A stretch of 64,000 bases of DNA, from the NCBI RefSeq assembly GCF_012927085.1, contig NZ_JABBFX010000001.1, positions 2,790,001 to 2,854,000 on the forward strand, given 5' to 3'. Both the position numbers and the translations under genes were made by a program. This stretch comes from Ramlibacter agri (GTDB taxonomy: Bacteria; Pseudomonadota; Gammaproteobacteria; Burkholderiales; Burkholderiaceae_C). Below, in pieces: positions 2,419 through 11,350 of this stretch. The notes under the pieces are model-generated. The model had not been told where the DNA came from. It was given only the letters and a program-made list of their open reading frames with translations, and ran no database searches. Every line of letters begins with the position of its first letter. Position 1 is the stretch's first letter.

Positions 2419-3153
2419 GTGGACCTGGAGATCTCCGAGGCGGAAGGCCTGCGCGTCATGCGCTTCGGCACGCACTGGTGCCAGGGCGCGATGCGCCTGG
2501 ACGCGCCGGACCGGCTGGAAATGGAGTACGCGCTGCGCATGTCGGCGTGGCTGCTGTTCCACGATCTGGCGTCGCTGCGCGAGCAGCACCTGGTGACTCT
2601 GGGGCTGGGCGCCGGCTCGCTGACCAAGTTCGCCTACCGCGTGCTGGGCGTGGAGGCGACCGCCGTGGAGATCGAAGCGGAAGTGATCGCGGCCTGCCGC
2701 GAACATTTCATGCTGCCGCCGGACGGCGCCGGCCTGCGCGTGGTGCATGCCGATGCCGCCGACTTCATCGCGAAAGAGCGCGGCTTCGACGTGGTGCAGG
2801 TCGACGCCTATGACGCGTCCGTGGATAAACCCGCGCTGGACTCCGAGGCCTTCTACGCCGATTGCCGCGGCGCGCTGCGGGATGGCGGGACCGTCGCCGT
2901 GAACCTGGTCGGCCGGGGCCTCGACGTGCGGGCCAGCGTCGCCCGCATCCGCCAGGGACTCCAACCGCGTGCGGTCTGGCAGTTCCCGCCGACCGAAGCC
3001 GGCAACGTGGTGGTCATCGCGCATTGCGGCGAAATGCCGCCAGAAGAAGTGCTGGCGGCGCGGGCCGTCGAAATCGAGCAGCGCTGGGACCTGCCGGCGG
3101 GCAGCTGGCTGGCCATGGCCCGGCGCTCCGCCGGGCCACCGCCTTCCGCCTAG
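2419..3153 (+). CDS. Spermidine-synthase-like SAM-fold protein
   Basis: 244 residues with a GTG start 6 nt after the exporter stop. The core is a Rossmann methyltransferase fold: LVTLGLGAGSLTKFAY is the glycine-rich motif I, followed by AVEIEAEVIAACREHF (acidic residue at the end of strand 2) and FDVVQVDAYDASV (motif near strand 4, with the D-x-Y-D seen in polyamine synthases). These fit the spermidine synthase-like family. The protein is shorter than true SpeE (about 280 residues) and lacks an obvious full N-terminal beta domain. True polyamine synthesis is therefore unproven and methyltransferase activity on another substrate is equally possible. Confidence 0.75.
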   Translation: MDLEISEAEGLRVMRFGTHWCQGAMRLDAPDRLEMEYALRMSAWLLFHDLASLREQHLVTLGLGAGSLTKFAYRVLGVEATAVEIEAEVIAACREHFMLPPDGAGLRVVHADAADFIAKERGFDVVQVDAYDASVDKPALDSEAFYADCRGALRDGGTVAVNLVGRGLDVRASVARIRQGLQPRAVWQFPPTEAGNVVVIAHCGEMPPEEVLAARAVEIEQRWDLPAGSWLAMARRSAGPPPSA

Positions 3154-4115
3154 TTGGCGGAGATCTTCGCCTTGGTGATCACCTCGCTCCAGCGCTTGCG
3201 CATGTCGCGGATCCAGGTGGCCGAGGCTTCGGGGGACAGGCCGGTGGGCGAGTAGTCGGCCTGGTGGTCCAGGTCCTGCACTTCCTTGCTGGCCATCGCG
3301 GCCTGCACTTCGCGGGTCAGCAACTGCAGGATTTCCTTCGGCGTGTTCGCCGGAGCCGCGATCACGTAGGCGAAGCTGGCGTTGAAGCCCGGGTAGCCCA
3401 GTTCGGCGACGGTGGGAACGTCCGGCGCGGAAGGCGAGCGGACGTTGCCCGAGACGGCCAGCGGCTTCAGCTTGCCCGCCTTGGCCTGCGGCCAGATGCC
3501 GCTGACCACTGCGAAGACGCTGTCCACCTGGCCGCCCATCACGTCGACCACCGAGGCGCCCGTGCCCTTGTAGGGAACGTGCGTCATGTCCAGGCCTGCC
3601 GTGGCCAGGAAGGCCGCCATCGTCAGGTGGCTGGGCGAGCCGTTGCCGCCGGAGGCATAGGACATCTTCTGCGTCTTCGCCAGCTGCACCAGGTCGGCCA
3701 GCGAGTTCGCCTTCACGTTCGGGCCCACGGCCAGCATCTGGCTGTAGGTGACCGGCACGCTGATGATGGCGAGGTCCTTGTTCACGTCGAACGGCATCTT
3801 GTCGTACAGCGACGGGTTCACCGTCAGCGTCGTGTCCAGCGCGAACAGGATGGTGTAGCCGTCCGCCGGCGCCTTGGCCACGATGTCGGCGCCGACGTTG
3901 CCGCCCGCTCCCGCGCGGTTGTCGACGATGAAGGGCTGCTTCAGCTTTTCCGAAACCTGCTTCACCACCACCCGCGCGAACGCGTCCAGCGGCCCGGGCA
4001 CGGTGGTCACCACCACGCGCACCGGCCGCTCGGGATACTCCGCCAGGGCCGGCGTCGCCGCGGCCAGCGCACCCAGGGCCAGCACGGCGCCCATGATCTT
4101 GTTGATCGCTTTCAC
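3150..4115 (-). CDS. Bug-family (TctC-like) periplasmic solute-binding protein
   Basis: 321 residues. A GTG start is chosen because AAGGAG lies 8 nt upstream and the translation opens with a clean signal peptide (MKAINKIMGAVLALGALA, cleavage after ALA near residue 25). The mature part begins YPERPVRVVVTT and carries VDNRAGAGGNVGAD, AKAPADGYTILFA and VPYKGTG, the conserved loops of Bug receptors that bind carboxylates or aromatic acids in the periplasm. It is the last gene of the leftward HDO/aldehyde dehydrogenase operon, 51 nt after the reductase gene, and so is a likely sensor or receptor for that pathway's substrate. No TctAB membrane genes are nearby. Its 3' end overlaps the convergent methyltransferase-like gene by 4 nt. 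Confidence 0.92.
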   Translation of the reverse strand: MKAINKIMGAVLALGALAAATPALAEYPERPVRVVVTTVPGPLDAFARVVVKQVSEKLKQPFIVDNRAGAGGNVGADIVAKAPADGYTILFALDTTLTVNPSLYDKMPFDVNKDLAIISVPVTYSQMLAVGPNVKANSLADLVQLAKTQKMSYASGGNGSPSHLTMAAFLATAGLDMTHVPYKGTGASVVDVMGGQVDSVFAVVSGIWPQAKAGKLKPLAVSGNVRSPSAPDVPTVAELGYPGFNASFAYVIAAPANTPKEILQLLTREVQAAMASKEVQDLDHQADYSPTGLSPEASATWIRDMRKRWSEVITKAKISAN

Positions 4116-4166
4116 CTTTGTCTCCTTCGATTGCCGGGCTCTCTCAGGCCCATGGTTGCACAGGAT

Positions 4167-5165
4167 TCACGCGACGGCTTCGGGCTGGAAGGTGAAGCCG
4201 TCGACATACACATGCCCGGCGCTGGCGCCGAGCTCCAGGAAGCGGTGCTTGGCCGCGCCGATCATCGTCGGCGAGCCGCACAGGTAGATCGCGTGCTCGG
4301 ACAGGTCCGGGAAGTCCGCGGCCACGGCGTCCTGCACGTAGCCGCGCCGGCCGGTCCAGCCTGCGTGCGGACGCGACAGGACCGGCACGAAATCGAATTC
4401 GTACAGGCGTTCGCCCCAGGCGCGGATCTCGTGTGCGAGGTAGAGGTCGGCCTCGGTGCGGCCACCCCAGTACAGCGACACGGGCGGACAGTCCGCGTCG
4501 TCCATCAGCGCTTCCAGCATGCTCTTGAGGGGCGCCAGGCCGGTGCCGGTGGCCGCCATCACCAGCGGACGGTAGTCCTCCTCGTGGTAGCGGAAGCGGC
4601 CCAGCGGGATCTCCACGTCCAGGCGCTCGCCCGCGGCCAGCTGCTGCAAGGCGGCGTCGGTGAAGCGGCCGCCGGGAATGCGCCGCACGTGGAAGTCGAC
4701 GCGGTTGCCCGCGGGGGCCGAAGCCATCGAGAAGCTGCGGTGCACGCCGGACTCCAGCAGCACGTTCATGTACTGCCCCGGGCGGTACTGCAGCGCGCCG
4801 CCCTCGATCTCCAGCTGCAGGCTGGCGACGTCGGGCGACCACGGCCGCACGCTGCGCACGACGGCCTGCCGGCGTTCGGCCGGCGGCGCATCGTCGCGCT
4901 CCACGCTGATCACGAGGTCGCTGCAGGCCCGCGCCTGGCAGGCCAGCGCGTAGCCGGCCTCGGCTTCCTCGGGCGCCAGCGCCAGGGGCATTTCCTCGTA
5001 GTCCACGCGGCCCTGGAGCAGCTTGATGCGGCAGGTGCCGCAGCCGCCGAAGGTGCACTCGTGGGGCAGGCCTACGCCCTGGCGGGTCGCGGCCTCCAGC
5101 AGCGGCTCGCCCGGCAGCGCCCTGAAGGCAGCGCCGGTTTCCTGCACGCTGATGCGGTGGCTCAT
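4167..5165 (-). CDS. [2Fe-2S] / FAD / NAD(P) ferredoxin reductase
   Basis: 332 residues from the ATG at 5165, which overlaps the stop of the GlcG-like gene (ATGA). Residues 1-90 are a plant-type ferredoxin domain with cluster ligands C37-x4-C42-x2-C45 and C76. Next comes an FNR-type FAD domain (YRPGQYMNV and HRSFSMAS, the RxYS-like FAD loop with Phe for Tyr), then an NAD(P) domain (VMAATGTGLAPLKSML and LCGSPTMI). This is the layout of oxygenase reductases such as BenC, XylZ and CDP-deoxyglucoseen reductases: it takes hydride from NAD(P)H and passes single electrons to an oxygenase or ferredoxin. The natural partners are the HDO-like oxidase and the two ferredoxins of the same cluster. Confidence 0.92.
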   Translation of the reverse strand: MSHRISVQETGAAFRALPGEPLLEAATRQGVGLPHECTFGGCGTCRIKLLQGRVDYEEMPLALAPEEAEAGYALACQARACSDLVISVERDDAPPAERRQAVVRSVRPWSPDVASLQLEIEGGALQYRPGQYMNVLLESGVHRSFSMASAPAGNRVDFHVRRIPGGRFTDAALQQLAAGERLDVEIPLGRFRYHEEDYRPLVMAATGTGLAPLKSMLEALMDDADCPPVSLYWGGRTEADLYLAHEIRAWGERLYEFDFVPVLSRPHAGWTGRRGYVQDAVAADFPDLSEHAIYLCGSPTMIGAAKHRFLELGASAGHVYVDGFTFQPEAVA

Positions 5166-5641
5166 TTCTTGATGTCCGCCTGCACCAGGACGTCGTAACC
5201 CTGCGGCTCCAGCAGCTCGCGTAGCGCCTGCAGGCCGGCCACGCCGCACTGCGTGTCCTGCTCGCCGTTGCCGCCGCTGAGGCCGATGCCGCCGATCACC
5301 TCGCCGTTGACGACGATCGGGTAGCCGCCGACGAAAGCGGCGAAGCGCCCCTCGAAACTGAGCTGGATGCCGAAGGCTTCGTTGCCAGGCAGCGCCGGGC
5401 CATCCGGCGCGCGGGTGAACAAATGGGTCGAGCGCTTGTGGCCGCTGGCGGTGAAGGCCTTGTTCCAGGCGATCTGCGGGCCGGTGATGCGCCCGCCGTC
5501 CATGCGTTGCAGCGCCAGCGGGTGGCCGCCCTCGTCGACGATGCACACCGATTCGCGCACGCCGATTTCCTCCGCCTTGCGCACGGCCGCCTGCGCCATG
5601 TGCAGGGCTTCGGCCAGTTCGAGCTTGATGGCTTTCTTCAT
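5162..5641 (-). CDS. GlcG/HbpS-family (DUF336) protein
   Basis: 159 residues, the normal size for the family. KLELAEALHMAQAAVRKAEEIG, IVDEGGHPLALQRMDG and PIVVNGEVIGGIGLSGG are the conserved stretches of the GlcG/HbpS fold. Members include the heme-binding Streptomyces HbpS and the glycolate-operon protein GlcG. Many are encoded beside oxidases or dehydrogenases in catabolic operons without a proven enzymatic role. No signal peptide, so cytoplasmic. It lies 10 nt after the aldehyde dehydrogenase gene and overlaps the reductase start, so it is co-expressed with both. A role in cofactor or metal handling for the redox enzymes is inference. Confidence 0.85.
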   Translation of the reverse strand: MKKAIKLELAEALHMAQAAVRKAEEIGVRESVCIVDEGGHPLALQRMDGGRITGPQIAWNKAFTASGHKRSTHLFTRAPDGPALPGNEAFGIQLSFEGRFAAFVGGYPIVVNGEVIGGIGLSGGNGEQDTQCGVAGLQALRELLEPQGYDVLVQADIKK

Positions 5642-5651
5642 GTCGCTGTCC

Positions 5652-7097
5652 TCAGAAGGCGCGGTAGACCGTCTTGGTCTGGGTGAAGAAGTCGAGGCCG
5701 ACGCGGCCCGACTCGCGGAAGCCCGAGCTGCTGCTGGCCTTGTAGCCGCCGAAGGGCGCGTTGGTGAGGTTGCCGGTGGTCGTGCGGTTCACCTTCACCG
5801 TGCCGGACTGGATGTCGCGGCAGAAGTCATGCACGTAGCGCGGGTTGCGCGTGGCGATGGCGGCCGACAGGCCGTAAGGCGTGTCGTTGGCTTTCGCGAT
5901 CGCGTCCTGGTAGCCGTCGACGTCGATCACTGCCAGGACGGGACCGAAGATCTCCTCCTGCGCGATCCGCGCGTGCGGCGAGACGTCGGTGAATACCGCC
6001 GGCTCGACGAAGAAGCCATGCTCGTGGTCCGGGCCGGTGAGGGCGCGGCCGCCGGCGGCCAGCTTCGCTTCCTGCTTGCCGATTTCCAGGTAGCGCAGCA
6101 CCGTTTCGTACTGCTTGCGGGTAGCGAGCGGGCCGAGGTCGACGCCGGCTTGCAAGCCGTTGGCGATCTTCAGCTTCGCCATGCGGGCAAGCAGTTTCTC
6201 GACGAACGCAGCGCGCACCTGCTTCACGACGAGGATGCGGCTGGTGCCGGTGCAGGCCTGGCCGGTCAGCGAGAAGCCGCCCTTGACGGCCAGGTCGACG
6301 GCCTGGTCCAGGTCGGCGTCTTCCATCACGATCAGCGGGTTTTTGCCACCCAGCTCCATCTGCGTGCGGGTGGTGAAGGCGACGCTGCGGTGGATCTGCT
6401 CGCCCGCGGCGGTGGAGCCGGTGAAGGTGACGGCGCGCACTTCAGGTGCGGCGGTCAACGCGGAGCCGACGTCGCCCGCGCGGCCGGTCACCAGGTTCAG
6501 CACGCCCGCCGGTGCACCGCCCGCGGCCAGGGCCTCGGCCAGATGCACGCCGGTCAGCGGCGCATCGGACGAGGGCTTGAACACTACGGTGTTGCCGGTG
6601 ATCAGGGCCGGCGCGATCTTGCGCGCCGGGATCGAGGCCGGAAAGTTCCACGGCGAAATGACGGCCACCACGCCCAGCGGTTCGCGCTGGCTGTAGACCA
6701 CCATGTCGGGATCGTCCGAGGGAAAGGTCTCGCCGGTGTGGGTCTGGCCTTCCACCGCGTAGAAGCGGAAGGTCTGCGCGGTGCGGGCGATTTCGTCCTG
6801 CGCCAGCGCCAGCGGCTTGCCCATCTCGCGCGTCAGGTCGCGGGCGAGGTCGGCGGCGTGTGCATCGAGCCAGGCCGCGGCGCGGGTCAGCACCTGCGCG
6901 CGCTTGGCAGGCGCGAGTGCACGCCAGGCGGGAAAGGCGGCGGACGCGGAGCTGATCGCGGCCTGCACATCCCGCGCATCGGAGGCTGCGAAGCGGCCCA
7001 CCAGCTCGCGCTCGTCGGCCGGGTTGCGGCGCTCGAAGGACTGGCCGGAGGCGGCGGCGCACCACTCCCCGGCGATGAAGTTGCGGTACTCGGTCAC
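5652..7097 (-). CDS. NAD(P)-dependent aldehyde dehydrogenase
   Basis: 481 residues, typical of the ALDH superfamily. A GTG start is used, with GAGGAA about 10 nt upstream. Catalytic features are all present: SPWNFP with Asn151 (oxyanion hole), the FTGSTAAGE nucleotide loop, MELGGKNP with Glu248 (general base) and GQACTGTSR with nucleophile Cys282. It resembles alpha-ketoglutaric semialdehyde, vanillin and succinic semialdehyde dehydrogenases, but substrate cannot be assigned. Its place 13 nt after the HDO-like oxidase gene suggests that it oxidises an aldehyde formed by that enzyme to a carboxylate (inference). Confidence 0.95.
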   Translation of the reverse strand: MTEYRNFIAGEWCAAASGQSFERRNPADERELVGRFAASDARDVQAAISSASAAFPAWRALAPAKRAQVLTRAAAWLDAHAADLARDLTREMGKPLALAQDEIARTAQTFRFYAVEGQTHTGETFPSDDPDMVVYSQREPLGVVAVISPWNFPASIPARKIAPALITGNTVVFKPSSDAPLTGVHLAEALAAGGAPAGVLNLVTGRAGDVGSALTAAPEVRAVTFTGSTAAGEQIHRSVAFTTRTQMELGGKNPLIVMEDADLDQAVDLAVKGGFSLTGQACTGTSRILVVKQVRAAFVEKLLARMAKLKIANGLQAGVDLGPLATRKQYETVLRYLEIGKQEAKLAAGGRALTGPDHEHGFFVEPAVFTDVSPHARIAQEEIFGPVLAVIDVDGYQDAIAKANDTPYGLSAAIATRNPRYVHDFCRDIQSGTVKVNRTTTGNLTNAPFGGYKASSSSGFRESGRVGLDFFTQTKTVYRAF

Positions 7098-7110
7098 GAG
7101 GGCGCGTTCC

Positions 7111-7872
7111 TCAGGCCGTGGCCAGGGCAGGGGCGGGCTTGCTGTCGGCGGCCAGCAACTCGGCGAGCGGGATCTCGCTGGCGACGTAGTCGTTGTACAG
7201 CGCCGTCGTGTACAGCAGGCGCATCTGGGCGCCCACTTCGCAGATCTTCAGGCAGCGCTGCTGCAGTTCCACCGTGGTCGCATGCTGCAGCACGATCTGG
7301 TAGCCGCGCTCACCGTGGATCTCGTCGGACACGATGTGCAGGTCGAAGAACTCGACTTCCTCGTCGCTGAACCGGTACTTGTCGCGCAGCGTCGGCGTCT
7401 GCTTGCGGTAGATCGAAGGCACCTGCGATTCCAGGCCGACCACCAGGCCGGCGACGGCCACGACCGGGTCTTCGCGCATCGCGACCGCGTAGCACCAGCT
7501 TTGCAGGCCGCGCGTGGTGGGCGACATGTTGTCCGGGTCGACGACGCGCTCGCGCGTGGTGCCGCAGGCTTCGGCGAAGCGGATCAGCAGGTCGGTGTGG
7601 CGGTCGCCGCCGATCTCTTCTTCGTACATGTTGGACAGCAGGAAGTCCTTGGCTTCGGTCAGCGTGTCCGGCGTGCGGGCGTAGATGTAGGCCAGGTAGT
7701 CGGCGAAGGGGCCGACGTAGTGGTAGTGGTTCTCGGCCCAGCGCGCCAGGTGGGCCCGGCTGAGGCGGCCGGTGGCCCAGGCGATGCTGAAGGGCGACTT
7801 GTTGGCGCTCTTTCCCTGGATGGCGCGCTCCAGGGCGGCGCGGAACTGGTCGCGGTTCATGAGTTCGGGCAT
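7111..7872 (-). CDS. Heme-oxygenase-like di-iron oxidase (HDO; TenA/CADD/PqqC-related)
   Basis: 253 all-alpha residues with AGGAG 7 nt before the ATG. The putative metal ligands are Glu85, His92, Glu148, His179, Asp183 and His186. The set ends in the H-x3-D-x2-H pattern of heme-oxygenase-like di-iron oxidases, and the spacing closely matches that I recall for the chlamydial protein CADD. A lysine (Lys157) sits where CADD has its catalytic Lys, but CADD's sacrificed Tyr in the HPFY motif appears to be Ser here (SPFS, residues 26-29), so a self-sacrificing p-aminobenzoate role is unlikely. HDO enzymes use O2 for C-C cleavage, N-oxygenation or hydroxylation. First gene of the leftward operon, facing two ferredoxin genes. 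Substrate unknown. Confidence 0.85.
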   Translation of the reverse strand: MPELMNRDQFRAALERAIQGKSANKSPFSIAWATGRLSRAHLARWAENHYHYVGPFADYLAYIYARTPDTLTEAKDFLLSNMYEEEIGGDRHTDLLIRFAEACGTTRERVVDPDNMSPTTRGLQSWCYAVAMREDPVVAVAGLVVGLESQVPSIYRKQTPTLRDKYRFSDEEVEFFDLHIVSDEIHGERGYQIVLQHATTVELQQRCLKICEVGAQMRLLYTTALYNDYVASEIPLAELLAADSKPAPALATA

Positions 7873-7912
7873 GCGGTTCTCCTGAGGTGGATCAAGGTTT
7901 GATCTGTAATTG

Positions 7913-7937
7913 CGGTATACGGTATCCCAAAATGGGA
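7913..7937. promoter_or_regulatory. Candidate operator: CGGTATAC plus TCCCA/TGGGA palindrome
   Basis: In the 169-bp divergent promoter between the HDO and ferredoxin genes. CGGTATAC (7913-7920) contains the palindrome GTATAC, and ATACGGTAT (7917-7925) is also symmetric. Directly after it TCCCA-AAA-TGGGA (7925-7937) is a perfect inverted repeat. GTATAC-centred sites are common for FCD-type GntR repressors, and such a gene ends the rightward operon (10697-11350). Assignment to that regulator is inference. Confidence 0.5.
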
Positions 7938-8003
7938 GAAGTTCAATTCCGGGTAATCACTATGGCCTCAGAGTAGGGGTGCGAACTCTGTTCGAGGACA
8001 TAA

Positions 8004-8020
8004 CGGTATACTATAGCCCA
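8004..8020 (+). promoter_or_regulatory. Second CGGTATAC copy overlapping a -10-like TATACT
   Basis: CGGTATAC recurs at 8004-8011, about 91 bp from the first copy, and overlaps TATACT (8007-8012), a good -10 hexamer for the ferredoxin operon that starts at 8042. No convincing -35 is seen, so activation or a weak core promoter is possible. A regulator bound here would block or bend RNA polymerase. Confidence 0.45.
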
Positions 8021-8041
8021 AGATCTCAAAAGGCAAACCCC

Positions 8042-8350
8042 ATGCCCTTCGTCACCTTCCACAAGCACGGCCAGGTCTTCCGCGAGGAGGTCAAGCCCAA
8101 CACCAACCTCGTGGTGCGGGCCGGCATCAAGCAGTTCCCCTATCCGAACCTCAGCTTCCAGTGCGGCATGGGCAAGTGCGCGACCTGCGCCTGCCGCGTG
8201 CTCGCCGGCGGCGAGCACCTGCCGCCGCCGAACTGGAAGGAGAAGAAGCAGCTGGGCGAGCGCCTGGAGCAGGGCTTCCGCCTGGTGTGCCAACTCTGGC
8301 TGGAGCACGACATCGAGCTCGTGCAGGAACCGCAAGCCGCCGCCGCCTGA
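8042..8350 (+). CDS. Plant-type [2Fe-2S] ferredoxin (stand-alone)
   Basis: 102 residues from the ATG at 8042 (AAAGG just upstream). An in-frame extension to 7910 reads through the operator region and is rejected. The cluster-binding pattern is C41-x4-C46-x2-C49 with the distal C83. The protein is a single beta-grasp ferredoxin domain with no extra partner domain. First gene of the rightward operon and a likely electron carrier between the reductase (4167-5165) and the HDO-like oxidase. The C-terminal tail is alanine-rich. Confidence 0.92.
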   Translation: MPFVTFHKHGQVFREEVKPNTNLVVRAGIKQFPYPNLSFQCGMGKCATCACRVLAGGEHLPPPNWKEKKQLGERLEQGFRLVCQLWLEHDIELVQEPQAAAA

Positions 8351-8363
8351 CGAGGGGAAACCG

Positions 8364-8975
8364 ATGTACGTGATCCTGACCAGCAAGCCGGGCCAATACC
8401 GCAGCGAACCCGGCGCGGGCTTCGCGCCGCGCGAGCAGTACGACTACGTCTTCAGCGGCCGGTTGCTCTCGCGCTTCGTGATCGCCGAACTGCAGGCGCC
8501 GGGCCGCGTGCGCATCGTGGAGGAGGGCGAGGGCGGCACCGTGAACAGCGTGCCGTCCAAGTTCCTGCCTCGCTTCGACACGCTGGAGGCCGCGCGCGCC
8601 GAACTCGAGGAACTCACGCACTTCGGCGACCTCGATGCGCGCCTGCTGCGCCAGCCCCTCGTCGAAGCCCCGCCCGAACCGGCGGCGCCGCCCACGCACG
8701 TGCACGTCACCTTCGTTCCCAAGGGCGAGCGCCAGGTGACCGCGCCCTACAACAGCAACCTGTTGCGGGTGTCGCTGCGCGAGCAGGGCGGCATTCCCTT
8801 CAAGTGCGGCGGCGGCGTGTGCGGCACCTGCAAGTGCCGCATCGTGCTGGGCCGGGAGAACACCGACACCGTCAAGGCGAAGGAGCGCAAGCACCTGAGC
8901 GAAGAGCAGCTGGCGGAAGGCTACCGCATGGCCTGCCAGACCTTCGTGCTCGGCGACGTCGCGGTGACCTGGTGA
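8364..8975 (+). CDS. Two-domain protein: unknown N-domain fused to [2Fe-2S] ferredoxin
   Basis: 203 residues, start preceded by GAGGGG. Residues 112-203 are a second plant-type ferredoxin with ligands C148-x4-C153-x2-C156 and C191. Residues 1-100 form a separate domain (MYVILTSKPGQYRSE, then YDYVFSGRLLSRFVIAEL and SKFLPRFDTLEAARAELEEL) that I do not recognise; it is joined by a proline/alanine linker near 101-111. It may be a docking or substrate-carrier domain for the oxidase. Lies 13 nt after the first ferredoxin gene and overlaps the permease start (GTGA). Two non-identical ferredoxins in one operon suggest two electron-transfer steps or partners. Confidence 0.8.
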   Translation: MYVILTSKPGQYRSEPGAGFAPREQYDYVFSGRLLSRFVIAELQAPGRVRIVEEGEGGTVNSVPSKFLPRFDTLEAARAELEELTHFGDLDARLLRQPLVEAPPEPAAPPTHVHVTFVPKGERQVTAPYNSNLLRVSLREQGGIPFKCGGGVCGTCKCRIVLGRENTDTVKAKERKHLSEEQLAEGYRMACQTFVLGDVAVTW

Positions 8976-9742
8976 CCGACGCATCCCTGTTCTCCGCGCT
9001 GTGGCCGCCGGCCCTGGACGCCGGCCGCTATGCAGCCATGGGCCTCCTGGTCTTCGGCGGCGCCTGCCTGCAGGGCGTGGGCGGGCTGGGCTTCTCGATG
9101 TTCTGCGCGCCGATCGCGCTGCTGCTGTTTCCCGAACTCGTTCCCGGCCCGCTGCTGGCGCTGGGCTGCCCGCTGGCGCTGCTGGCGGGCCTGCGCGAAT
9201 TCAAGGCGATCGAGTGGGGCACGGCCGGCTATACGCTGGTGGGCCGCGCGCTCGGCGCGGCGCTTGCCACCGCGGTCTTGCAGGTGCTTTCGGGGCCGAC
9301 GCTGTCGGTGGTGTTCGCACTGCTGATCCTCGGTGGCGTGGCCTTGAGCGTGCAGGGCTGGGTGGTGCGCGTGACGCCTGCCGCCAGTTCCGCCGCCGGC
9401 GTCGCCTCCGGGCTCATGGGCACGATCACTTCCGCGGGCGCTCCGCCGCTCGCCATCGCGCTGCAGGACCTGCAGCCGGCGCCGCTGCGCGCGACGCTGG
9501 GTTGCGTGTTCTTCATCGGCTCGGTGATGTCACTGCTGGCGCTGGCCGCGGCCGGCAAGACCGACGCGCACAATCTCCTCATCGGCGTGCTGCTGCTGCC
9601 CTGGATGGCGGCCGGCTTCTTCGCCTCGGGGCCGCTGGCGCGGCGCATGTCGCGCACCGGCGTGCGGCGCGTGCTGCTGACGCTGGCCACCTTCAGTGCC
9701 CTGGCCGTGCTGGCGCAAGGCCTTCTGCATTCCCAAGCCTGA
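8972..9742 (+). CDS. TauE/SafE-family membrane permease
   Basis: 256 residues with a GTG start that overlaps the ferredoxin stop (GTGA). About eight hydrophobic helices in two related halves are visible, with GGACLQGVGGLGFSMFCAPIALL near the N-terminus and SAAGVASGLMGTITSAGAPPLAI near residue 135, the glycine-rich repeats of the TauE/SafE (formerly DUF81) family. Characterised members move sulfoacetate, sulfite or other small organic anions, usually outward. In this operon it probably imports or exports the pathway's substrate or product. The transported compound is unknown. Confidence 0.85.
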   Translation: MTDASLFSALWPPALDAGRYAAMGLLVFGGACLQGVGGLGFSMFCAPIALLLFPELVPGPLLALGCPLALLAGLREFKAIEWGTAGYTLVGRALGAALATAVLQVLSGPTLSVVFALLILGGVALSVQGWVVRVTPAASSAAGVASGLMGTITSAGAPPLAIALQDLQPAPLRATLGCVFFIGSVMSLLALAAAGKTDAHNLLIGVLLLPWMAAGFFASGPLARRMSRTGVRRVLLTLATFSALAVLAQGLLHSQA

Positions 9743-9748
9743 ACCTCC

Positions 9749-10684
9749 ATGCTGCACATCACGGATTCGATGATCGACGCCGCCGTCGCCCCGGCGGACG
9801 CCCAGCAGGCCCTGCTGGAAGCCTTGCGCAGCTTCGGCGCCGGCCGCGGCGCGATGCAGGAACGCATCCGCACCGAGGCCGGCGGCGTCAAGGTGTCCAC
9901 CATGGGTGCGGTGTTGCCGGACCAGGGCTTCGCCGGCGCCAAGGTCTACACGACGATCAAGGGCCAGTTCGATTTCGTCATCCTGCTGTTCTCCGCCGAA
10001 AGCGGTCGGCCGCTCGCCTCGCTCGAAGCGAACGCCATCACCCGGCTGCGCACCGCCGCCTGCTCGGTGATCGCGGCGCGCCGATTGGCGCGGCCCGATT
10101 CGCGCCGGCTCGCCTTGTTCGGCGCCGGCGTGCAGGGGCAGGCCCACGCCATGCAGTTTTCCCGCGCTTTCCCGCTGGAGGAGATCCGCGTGGTCGATCC
10201 CTATGCGCCGGCCGACGTCGCCGCGCGCCTGGAGGCCGACTGCGGCGTGCGCGTGCGCATGACCGATGCAGCGGCCGCCGTCGACAACGCCGACATCGTG
10301 GTGACCGCTTCGCGCTCCACGCAGCCCCTCTTCGACGGCGCGGCGCTGGCGCCCGGTACCTTCGTCGCGGCGATCGGCTCCAGCCTGCCCGGCACGCGCG
10401 AGCTCGATGACACGGCCTTGCGCCGCGCCTCGCGTATCGTGATGGACTGGTCGCCGCAGACCTTGCGCGAAGCAGGCGACCTGGCCCAGGCCGGCCCCGG
10501 CTGCCTGGCGCCGGACAAGATGGCGGACCTCGCCGAGGTGGTGAGCGGCTTGAAGCCCGGCCGGGCCGGCGCGGAAGAAATCACGATCTACAAGGCCGTC
10601 GGTGTCGGCCTGCAGGACGTGGCGCTCGCCGGCCTGGCCTGGCAGCGCATCACCGCGAACGGCCAGGAAGCCGTCGCCGCATAA
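9749..10684 (+). CDS. Ornithine cyclodeaminase / mu-crystallin family NAD(P)-binding protein
   Basis: 311 residues. The N-terminal dimerisation part carries MQERIRTEAGGVKVSTMGAV and GFAGAKVYTT, the Rossmann part has LFGAGVQGQAHAMQF (near residues 127-141) and ADIVVTASRSTQPLFDG. These are the hallmarks of the family that includes ornithine cyclodeaminase, alanine dehydrogenase of archaea, and imine/ketimine reductases such as mu-crystallin. The residues that define true ornithine cyclodeaminase could not be confirmed, so a ketimine reductase or amino acid dehydrogenase role is equally likely. Six nt after the permease gene in the ferredoxin operon. Its presence hints that the substrate or an intermediate is nitrogenous (inference). 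Confidence 0.85.
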   Translation: MLHITDSMIDAAVAPADAQQALLEALRSFGAGRGAMQERIRTEAGGVKVSTMGAVLPDQGFAGAKVYTTIKGQFDFVILLFSAESGRPLASLEANAITRLRTAACSVIAARRLARPDSRRLALFGAGVQGQAHAMQFSRAFPLEEIRVVDPYAPADVAARLEADCGVRVRMTDAAAAVDNADIVVTASRSTQPLFDGAALAPGTFVAAIGSSLPGTRELDDTALRRASRIVMDWSPQTLREAGDLAQAGPGCLAPDKMADLAEVVSGLKPGRAGAEEITIYKAVGVGLQDVALAGLAWQRITANGQEAVAA

Positions 10685-10696
10685 AATCCCCCCAGC

Positions 10697-11350
10697 ATGG
10701 ACCTGCCGATTCCCGAACGCACGCTGGGCGAAAGCCACTCGCCGCTGACCCGCATGGTGGTGGACACGTTGCGCGACCGCATCCTCAGCGGCGCGGCCGC
10801 CGGTGGCGACCGCCTGGTCGAAGGCAAGCTGTCCGAGGAACTCGGCGTGTCGCGCATGCCGGTGCGCGAGGCCTTGCGCCAGCTCGCGTCCGAAGGCCTG
10901 GTGACCATCGAGCCGCGCCGCGGCGCCGCCGTCACCCAGTTCAGCGAGGAGCAGGTCCGCGAGCTGGTCGAAGTGCGCGCCACGCTGGAAGGCCTCAACG
11001 CCAAGCTGGCCGCCAAGCGCCACGACGCTGCCAAGATCGAGGAGCTCCAGAGCATCCTGTCCGAAGGCGTGCGGCTGGCCGAGACCGGCGACACGCTGAC
11101 CTTGATGCGGCTGAACCAGCGCTTCCACGACGCGCTGGCCAACATCGCCGCCAACTCGGTGCTGCGCGACATCATGCGTTCGCTGCGGGACCGCACGGCC
11201 TTGCTGTTCTCGCCGCTGAACAGCGGCCGCGGCAAGCAGAACTGGGAAGAGCACGCGGCGATCCTGCGCGCCGTGATCGACGGCGATGCGGAACTCGCTT
11301 CGCTGCTGGCCACCCGCCACGTGTACAACGCGGCGCAGATGCAGCCCTGA
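10697..11350 (+). CDS. GntR-family (FCD/FadR-type) transcriptional regulator
   Basis: 217 residues. Residues 15-80 form the winged-helix domain (DTLRDRILSGAAAGGDRLVEGKLSEELGVSRMPVREALRQL, then GLVTIEPRRGAAV). The remainder is the all-helical FCD ligand domain with the metal-type histidines in NQRFHDAL, EEHAAIL and TRHVYN. FCD regulators generally repress and are released by organic-acid effectors. It lies 12 nt after the cyclodeaminase-like gene and is probably the local controller of both arms of the HDO/ferredoxin cluster, acting on the CGGTATAC sites at 7913 and 8004 (inference). Confidence 0.93.
   Translation: MDLPIPERTLGESHSPLTRMVVDTLRDRILSGAAAGGDRLVEGKLSEELGVSRMPVREALRQLASEGLVTIEPRRGAAVTQFSEEQVRELVEVRATLEGLNAKLAAKRHDAAKIEELQSILSEGVRLAETGDTLTLMRLNQRFHDALANIAANSVLRDIMRSLRDRTALLFSPLNSGRGKQNWEEHAAILRAVIDGDAELASLLATRHVYNAAQMQP

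What the first reader, a model, noticed from the sequence alone, without database searches (positions are those of the whole stretch)
3150..11350. A complete, apparently uncharacterised HDO-type oxygenase system with three [2Fe-2S] proteins
Ten genes in two divergent operons: HDO-like di-iron oxidase, aldehyde dehydrogenase, GlcG-like protein, [2Fe-2S]-FAD reductase and Bug receptor one way; two ferredoxins, TauE/SafE permease, ornithine-cyclodeaminase homologue and GntR/FCD regulator the other. Seen: ligand pattern E85/H92/E148/H179/D183/H186, three ferredoxin domains and the shared promoter. Known: HDO enzymes are O2-dependent and often need an electron source. Inferred: NAD(P)H passes via reductase and ferredoxins to the HDO enzyme, which makes an aldehyde oxidised by the ALDH; the cyclodeaminase homologue hints at a nitrogenous substrate. 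I know of no described pathway with this gene set.
Basis: partly seen in the sequence, partly recalled or inferred. Interest (0 to 1): 0.8.

Follow-up and report, generated by a model that had tools for sequence, protein, structure and literature searches.

The report
Ferredoxin-fed di-iron oxygenase gene cluster
A soil bacterium carries a compact, widely shared set of genes for what looks like an oxygen-using iron enzyme with its own electron supply and an unfamiliar small partner protein; what it breaks down is still unknown.

Summary
The ten-gene locus is real, and all ten family assignments hold. The HDO-like protein has all six expected metal ligands, invariant in 33 of 33 aligned sequences. 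Its model is confident (pLDDT 91) and the closest solved fold is the di-metal enzyme CtCADD. The neighbourhood is not strain-specific: among 80 loci with orthologues (83-91% identical), ferredoxin 1 is found in 77, ferredoxin 2 in 77, GlcG in 78, GntR in 78, ALDH in 75 and reductase in 65.

The second 'ferredoxin' is a fusion: its first ~105 residues ('X') are a separate gene in 82 of 87 loci, match no Pfam family and have no PDB fold match at E<=1e-3. X nearly always accompanies this HDO. GTATAC-type sites precede HDO in 86 of 90 loci, against 7% of random stretches.

Best reading: a multicomponent, NAD(P)H-driven HDO oxygenase for catabolism. One dedicated HDO-redox partner pair (MboA/MboB) is published; I found no description of a ferredoxin-fed, catabolic, X-containing version. 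Substrate and reaction are unknown. Bug, OCD and TauE are accessory.

The parts
7111..7872 (-). HDO-like di-metal oxygenase (253 aa); ligands E85, H92, E148, H179, D183, H186
   Evidence: PF14518 129 bits; ligands invariant in 33 of 33 aligned; AF2 pLDDT 91.4; Foldseek best CtCADD 8va9, TM 0.78/0.91, rmsd 2.0
8042..8350 (+). Ferredoxin 1, [2Fe-2S], 102 aa
   Evidence: Fer2; in 77 of 80 loci, CX4CX2C motif in 77 of 77
8364..8678 (+). Domain X, about 105 aa, beta strands with one helix in the model; a separate gene in most relatives
   Evidence: no Pfam family; no PDB sequence match; AF2 pLDDT 89.9; no fold match at E<=1e-3; 76 of 80 loci; separate ORF in 82 of 87
8679..8975 (+). Ferredoxin 2, [2Fe-2S], fused here to X
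   Evidence: Fer2 at residues 122-195; 77 of 80 loci
4167..5165 (-). NAD(P)H reductase: [2Fe-2S] + FAD + NAD domains, BenC-like
   Evidence: BenC model 198 bits, below its cut-off of 430; 65 of 80 loci
5162..5641 (-). GlcG/DUF336-like protein (HbpS-like family)
   Evidence: PF03928; relatives NahX, PduO-C, EfgA in PDB; 78 of 80 loci
5652..7097 (-). Aldehyde dehydrogenase; nearest NCBIfam model is alpha-ketoglutaric semialdehyde dehydrogenase, but below its cut-off
   Evidence: 75 of 80 loci
10697..11350 (+). GntR/FCD regulator, probable regulator of the locus
   Evidence: 78 of 80 loci
7914..7928 (+). Operator-like site GGTATACGGTATCCC in the divergent promoter
   Evidence: exact match to the pattern in the own genome; motif class upstream of HDO in 86 of 90 loci versus 287 of 4000 random stretches
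8005..8019 (+). Second operator-like site GGTATACTATAGCCC
   Evidence: one mismatch to the pattern
9749..10684 (+). Ornithine cyclodeaminase/mu-crystallin homologue (accessory)
   Evidence: PF02423; nearest PDB 3hdj, E 1.8e-101; 36 of 80 loci
8972..9742 (+). TauE/SafE permease (accessory)
   Evidence: 54 of 80 loci
3150..4115 (-). Bug/TctC solute receptor (lineage-specific accessory)
   Evidence: 3 of 80 loci at >=45% identity

Best explanation
The locus encodes a multicomponent, O2-dependent oxygenase whose catalytic part is a di-iron (or Mn/Fe) HDO protein. NAD(P)H electrons enter through the [2Fe-2S]-FAD reductase, pass to one or both ferredoxins, and reduce the HDO di-metal centre on each turnover; domain X probably acts as a small effector or docking protein that couples ferredoxin to HDO. 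The reaction is part of the catabolism of a small imported compound. The GlcG/DUF336 protein most likely handles a reactive, aldehyde-like product, ALDH oxidises it, and a dedicated GntR/FCD repressor binding GTATAC-type sites controls the divergent operons. Shown: gene content, ligand conservation, predicted fold, conserved neighbourhood, HDO-X-ferredoxin co-occurrence, shared promoter motif. Inferred: O2 use, electron route, role of X, aldehyde product, GntR as the binder of the motif. Unknown: substrate and reaction.
For: Six HDO ligands invariant in 33 of 33 aligned; fold of CtCADD. Ferredoxin 1-X-ferredoxin 2 in the same order and strand in 76 of 76 loci that have all three. Family draw: all 8 HDO genomes of 299 have X; X occurs in one further genome of 298, whose contig starts 251 bases before ferredoxin 1, just where HDO would be. 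Order draw: 9 of 10 HDO genomes have X, and 0 of the other 389. The tenth, G846, still has HDO next to both ferredoxins and GlcG. HDO is the most conserved part (median identity 87%, against 60-76% for ferredoxins, reductase, GlcG, ALDH and GntR and 50% for X). Promoter motif; in the 3 of 7 other genomes that matched a strict form of it, the only matches lie inside the HDO cluster. Precedent: MboB, a flavin/Fe2S2 reductase, is needed for full MboA turnover (PMC13185094, passages). DUF336 precedent for aldehyde sensing: EfgA (PMC8153426, passages); its formaldehyde-site residues K57/S114/D121 align with K61/S122/D129 of GlcG, taking the solved chain's numbering as offset by 20, although the paper says these are largely conserved in DUF336 proteins generally. 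Catabolic setting: transporters of several families, and amide or ester hydrolases near 44 of 90 loci.
Against: No biochemical data. Reductase is missing in 12 of 69 full-flank loci (10 of them Alphaproteobacteria by title) and ALDH in 4 of 69; X, reductase, ALDH and GntR are missing in G846. The motif precedes ferredoxin 1 within 260 bases in only 17 of 88 loci, although ferredoxin 1 often lies elsewhere in the cluster; 4 of 7 genomes had no match to the strict motif. HDOs characterised so far are described as biosynthetic and without a protein effector. Cupriavidus (23) and Achromobacter (25) supply 48 of the 80 loci by record title, so counts are not independent. The window itself has none of the hydrolases tested nearby.
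Confidence: 0.72

Rival explanations
1. Same machine, specific chemistry: HDO hydroxylates the carbon next to nitrogen of an N-alkyl amide or lactam (dealkylation or ring opening), giving an aldehyde for GlcG/ALDH and an amide for the co-located hydrolases.
For: Unrelated amide hydrolases near the cluster: amidase-signature in 22, isochorismatase-type in 10, GGT-type in 10 of 90 loci; OCD family models and structures include enzymes on cyclic imines (names); GlcG relative EfgA binds formaldehyde.
Against: 46 of 90 loci have none of the five hydrolase types tested, and neither has the window with 12 kb upstream; family membership does not fix the substrate; hydrolases may act on a conjugate upstream.
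Confidence: 0.2
2. Sulfonate desulfonation: HDO releases sulfite and an aldehyde, and TauE exports sulfite.
For: TauE in 54 of 80 loci; SsuA-family-like ABC receptor near several loci (80.3 bits, below its cut-off of 163.5); a sulfite-oxidase-family gene near HDO in 15 of 25 Achromobacter loci and one Cupriavidus plasmid.
Against: TauE/SafE and NMT1 families transport many compounds (recalled); the Achromobacter gene is probably one shared ancestral position; TauE not found in 26 of 80 loci.
Confidence: 0.12
3. HDO is not an oxygenase but a metal-binding or cofactor-free PqqC/TenA-like protein, and the ferredoxins serve another enzyme.
For: PqqC and TenA share the fold; HDO also scores to PqqC (52.7 bits, below the 240 cut-off).
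Against: All six di-metal ligands invariant in 33 of 33; among the recurrent neighbours that I identified no other oxygenase turned up; the minimal cluster in G846 is GlcG-HDO-ferredoxin 1-ferredoxin 2.
Confidence: 0.1
4. HDO is a self-sacrificing p-aminobenzoate synthase of the CADD/NePabS type.
For: Closest solved relatives are CADD and a 4-aminobenzoate synthase.
Against: The sacrificed Tyr27 and Lys152 of CADD (PMC11965152, passages) align with S29 and Q158 here, both invariant in 33 of 33; TIGR04305 score 94.7 against a cut-off of 200.
Confidence: 0.02

Closest known systems
MboA/MboB (mangotoxin acetylenase and its reductase)
   Same: HDO with a 3-His/3-carboxylate site and a dedicated NAD(P)H-flavin-[2Fe-2S] reductase (PMC13185094, passages)
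   Different: Biosynthetic, peptide substrate, no separate ferredoxins or X in the passages read; here two ferredoxins, X, GlcG and ALDH in what looks like a catabolic setting
CtCADD / NePabS p-aminobenzoate synthases
   Same: Closest solved fold and sequence; ligand positions align
   Different: Sacrificial Tyr and Lys absent; below the CADD family cut-off
Bacterial multicomponent monooxygenases (soluble methane monooxygenase type)
   Same: Works like: reductase, ferredoxin, possible small effector and di-iron catalytic protein (general knowledge of those systems)
   Different: Catalytic protein has the heme-oxygenase-like fold, not a ferritin-like one; X has no significant match to any solved protein
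BenC/AntC-type reductases
   Same: Fer2-FAD-NAD domain order; BenC model 198 bits
   Different: Below the BenC cut-off of 430; none of the ten genes is a Rieske oxygenase
EfgA / GlcG / PduO-C / NahX (DUF336)
   Same: Same Pfam family; solved relatives at E 7.6e-15 to 4.6e-23
   Different: Membership of the EfgA clade not tested; function in this cluster unknown

Membership tests
HDO superfamily (heme-oxygenase-like dimetal oxidases) | Heme-oxygenase-like helical fold | tested here: met
   AF2 model pLDDT 91.4; Foldseek matches CADD, UndA, HrmI, FlcD, BesC
HDO superfamily (heme-oxygenase-like dimetal oxidases) | 3-His/3-carboxylate ligand set on three core helices | tested here: met
   Invariant in 33 of 33; each residue aligns to CADD (CADD ligand numbers recalled); lie in or at the start of helices 72-87, 92-102, 148-164, 174-197 of the model. 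Distances not measured
HDO superfamily (heme-oxygenase-like dimetal oxidases) | Binds two metals and activates O2 | not testable with these tools
   needs purified protein
CADD/PabS pABA synthases | Sacrificial Tyr27 and Lys152 | tested here: not met
   S29 and Q158 at those positions, invariant
CADD/PabS pABA synthases | TIGR04305 curated cut-off | tested here: not met
   94.7 bits against 200
PqqC | TIGR02111 curated cut-off | tested here: not met
   52.7 bits against 240
HDO with dedicated redox partner (MboA/MboB kind) | Co-located flavin/[2Fe-2S] NAD(P)H reductase | tested here: met
   reductase in the window and in 65 of 80 loci
HDO with dedicated redox partner (MboA/MboB kind) | Turnover depends on the partner | not testable with these tools
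   needs in vitro reconstitution
Bacterial multicomponent monooxygenases | Ferritin-like di-iron hydroxylase | tested here: not met
   PF14518, heme-oxygenase-like fold
Ornithine cyclodeaminase | Curated NCBIfam cut-offs of the models matched | tested here: not met
   best 155.4 bits, all 14 models below cut-off; Pfam superfamily met
Alpha-ketoglutaric semialdehyde dehydrogenase | NF042993 cut-off | tested here: not met
   539.8 bits against 770
X as a known family or fold | Match in Pfam-A or PDB | tested here: not met
   0 families for the window member; five families each hit by one of 40 members, best E 0.0043; PDB sequence best E 0.78; fold best E 0.037, TM 0.20

The most novel reading that the evidence does not exclude
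A further architecture of multicomponent oxygenase: a heme-oxygenase-fold di-metal catalyst served by a reductase, two ferredoxins and an effector (X) of new fold, convergent with the methane/toluene monooxygenase design and spread by horizontal transfer through Proteobacteria as a catabolic cassette with its own operator.
Probability: 0.4. Interest if true: 0.82.

Novelty: new variant of a known kind. Interest (0 to 1): 0.66.

Why it matters
A 2026 review counts about a dozen functionally validated HDOs among more than 10,000 members, links them to biosynthesis, and says those studied do not need a protein effector (PMC13108848, abstract, sections 4 and 11 and passages). This cluster would move the HDO fold into ferredoxin-driven catabolism, give a co-conserved set for reconstitution, and offer a defined test of whether HDOs can be gated by partner proteins. 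X is a candidate new fold with specific, testable partners. The cluster recurs in Cupriavidus, Achromobacter, Bradyrhizobium and Variovorax, so a substrate could be sought by mutant growth screens in ordinary laboratory strains.

Tried and rejected
pABA synthase, PqqC and ordinary multicomponent monooxygenase were tested as memberships and rejected. A wider regulon was sought to reveal the substrate: in the own genome the exact operator match is in the HDO promoter; two places have one mismatch, the second HDO-promoter site and L144, which lies beside what reads like a LysR-type regulator (my reading, no family search). The other matches need two mismatches and are at the level of the reversed-pattern control (14 strand-wise matches in all against 9), so nothing was added. 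Ten answered literature searches gave no description of the cluster. Pyrrole-2-carboxylate was considered as substrate because ALDH and OCD resemble enzymes around alpha-ketoglutaric semialdehyde and pyrroline carboxylate; there is no direct evidence, so it is not listed as a rival. One search reported 23 fused X-ferredoxin genes; that was wrong because tblastn alignments crossed in-frame stops, and one search replaces it (5 fused, one of them L133 repeating L003; 82 separate). The first neighbourhood tables used a ferredoxin 1 query in the wrong frame or crude ORF picking; counts here come. Rfam (gathering threshold) and tRNA scans of the window were empty. Recurrent neighbours were identified only in part: 20 representative proteins were scanned.

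Rows dropped before counts: L001 and L002 (own genome); L133 in the hydrolase table and; loci under 16,600 bases in the 69-locus figures. (90 loci) and the fused/separate count (87 loci) still contain L133. Alignment A1 used 32 of the 80 fetched loci, and the X alignments A3/A4 39 and 37 relatives.


Full report
1. What is there. The window lies on a 3.83 Mb contig of a 7.2 Mb genome. Its genus is most likely Ramlibacter: G465, a genome 'of the same genus', has a contig of the same length (706,482) and the same gene layout as the Ramlibacter ginsenosidimutans record L003. Leftward: HDO, ALDH, GlcG-like, reductase, Bug receptor. Rightward: ferredoxin 1, X-ferredoxin 2 fusion, TauE, OCD homologue, GntR/FCD. 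Pfam-A gives PF14518 at 129 bits for HDO; NCBIfam finds CADD (94.7 bits) and PqqC (52.7), both far below their cut-offs.

2. The catalytic protein. E85, H92, E148, H179, D183 and H186 are invariant in the 33 aligned sequences (window plus 32 of 80 fetched loci), and mean column identity is 88%. The AlphaFold2 model (29-row alignment) has mean pLDDT 91.4 and pTM 0.87; the ligands fall in or at the start of helices 72-87, 92-102, 148-164 and 174-197. Foldseek puts CtCADD first (TM 0.78 on the query, 0.91 on the target, rmsd 2.0), with PqqC, UndA, HrmI, FlcD and BesC among the next. In the alignment the six residues correspond to CADD residues 81, 88, 142, 174, 178 and 181, which I recall as its metal ligands. 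Co-location in space is therefore inferred from fold and alignment; I had no coordinates. The residues that CADD sacrifices, Tyr27 and Lys152 (PMC11965152, passages), are S29 and Q158 here.

3. A missed component. Residues 1 to about 105 of the 8364-8975 protein precede the ferredoxin domain and have no Pfam match at or above a family cut-off. In relatives the same stretch is an independent gene, annotated 'hypothetical protein' in two Caballeronia plasmids. By in-frame stops or frame changes it is separate in 82 of 87 loci and fused in 5, one of them a repeat of L003. Among 40 members there is no consistent Pfam match, the profile finds nothing significant in the PDB (best E 0.78), and the confident model (pLDDT 89.9, pTM 0.81, seven strands and one helix) has no PDB match at E<=1e-3 (best 0.037). 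X may be a new small fold; a missing match does not prove it.

4. Conservation. A scan of the 84,980-species collection found 488 candidate relatives; the best 80 were kept and are 83-91% identical to the window protein, from Alpha- and Betaproteobacteria. By record title 23 are Cupriavidus and 25 Achromobacter, so counts are not independent. With coverage and identity cut-offs: HDO 80, GlcG 78, GntR 78, ferredoxin 1 77, ferredoxin 2 77, X 76, ALDH 75, reductase 65, TauE 54, OCD 36, Bug 3 of 80. Among the 69 loci with full flanks, 55 hold HDO, both ferredoxins, X, reductase, GlcG and GntR; 12 lack the reductase and 4 the ALDH. Ferredoxin 1-X-ferredoxin 2 keep order and strand in 76 of 76. HDO is the most conserved protein (median 87%), X the least of the core (50%).

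5. Specific pairing. In 299 family genomes HDO occurs in 8, always at 83% identity or more; X occurs in 9 of 298, those 8 plus G503, where the contig begins 251 bases before ferredoxin 1. In 399 order genomes HDO occurs in 10 (80% identity or more) and X in 9, all nine shared. The tenth, G846, has GlcG-HDO and ferredoxin 1-ferredoxin 2 divergently, without X, reductase, ALDH or GntR in the 19.9 kb fetched. In a class-wide draw HDO was found in 1 of 369 genomes, the window's own. PF14518 itself is common (34 of 120 family genomes), but the 27 other members held as loci had no homologue of the partner proteins within about 1.5 kb. The patchy spread, the recurring gene content and the copies on plasmids, one beside transposase genes, suggest horizontal transfer; no tree was made to test this.

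6. Regulation. GTATAC-type sequences occur within 260 bases upstream of HDO in 86 of 90 loci and of a neighbouring 515-residue permease in 71 of 73, against 287 of 4000 random stretches of the same loci (7.2%), 1 of 88 upstream of GlcG and 0 of 73 upstream of the reductase. Other genes: GntR 37 of 89, ALDH 34 of 85, ferredoxin 1 17 of 88, OCD 9 of 47. A stricter pattern was found in 55 of 89 HDO promoters. The window has two sites, 7914-7928 and 8005-8019. Of 7 other whole genomes, 3 matched TGTATACWRTATACA with up to one mismatch, each only inside its HDO cluster; 4 had no match at that stringency. That the GntR/FCD protein binds these sites is inferred from co-conservation.

7. Setting. Near the cluster in relatives lie transporters of several kinds: a 515-residue permease without a Pfam match, MFS, Bug, TauE, and an NMT1/SsuA-like ABC system. 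Hydrolases of unrelated families occur within 5 kb of the core in 44 of 90 loci: amidase 22, isochorismatase-type 10, GGT-type 10, carboxylesterase 4, alpha/beta-hydrolase 3, with overlaps; 46 of 90 have none of those five. The window's first 16.5 kb and 12 kb of flanking genome have none of them, nor the permease or ABC system. This fits catabolism of a compound with an amide or ester step in some lineages, but not strongly. GlcG's solved relatives include NahX, PduO-C and the formaldehyde sensor EfgA (PMC8153426, passages); EfgA K57, S114 and D121 align with K61, S122 and D129 (solved chain numbered +20), residues the paper calls largely conserved across DUF336 proteins.

8. Mechanism. Most likely NAD(P)H to reductase to ferredoxin(s) to HDO, with X as coupling protein. 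Why two ferredoxins is open: one may serve HDO and the other an unknown partner, or they may act in series. Loci without a nearby reductase presumably borrow one. MboA/MboB is the nearest precedent (PMC13185094, passages).

9. Verdict. It is a new variant of a known kind, uncharacterised as far as my ten literature searches reach.

Noticed in passing
L016 3915 and 8001; L081 8 and 8001: Cupriavidus basilensis KF708 and Aminobacter carboxidus carry two copies of this HDO within about 8 kb.
   Followed up: no
L175 9041-9706 (genome G846): A second HDO-like protein, 32-33% identical, lies next to Bug receptor genes with no ferredoxin homologue in the 17.7 kb fetched: a possible sister family.
   Followed up: partly
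L063 5612-6847 and 14 other Achromobacter loci; L085 from 6504: A sulfite-oxidase-family molybdoenzyme gene lies within about 2 kb of the HDO cluster.
   Followed up: partly
L012 4979-6526: A 515-residue, membrane-protein-like permease next to the cluster in 73 of 90 loci has no Pfam match at E<=0.01 and no NCBIfam match at E<=1e-10.
   Followed up: no
L083 18948-22021: ISNCY transposase genes close to the Caballeronia plasmid copy of the cluster.
   Followed up: no
L174: The minimal cluster of G846 is surrounded by genes that read like TPP enzyme, class II aldolase, FAD monooxygenase, GMC and MmgE/PrpD families (my reading of translations, no family search), which may hint at the pathway.
   Followed up: no
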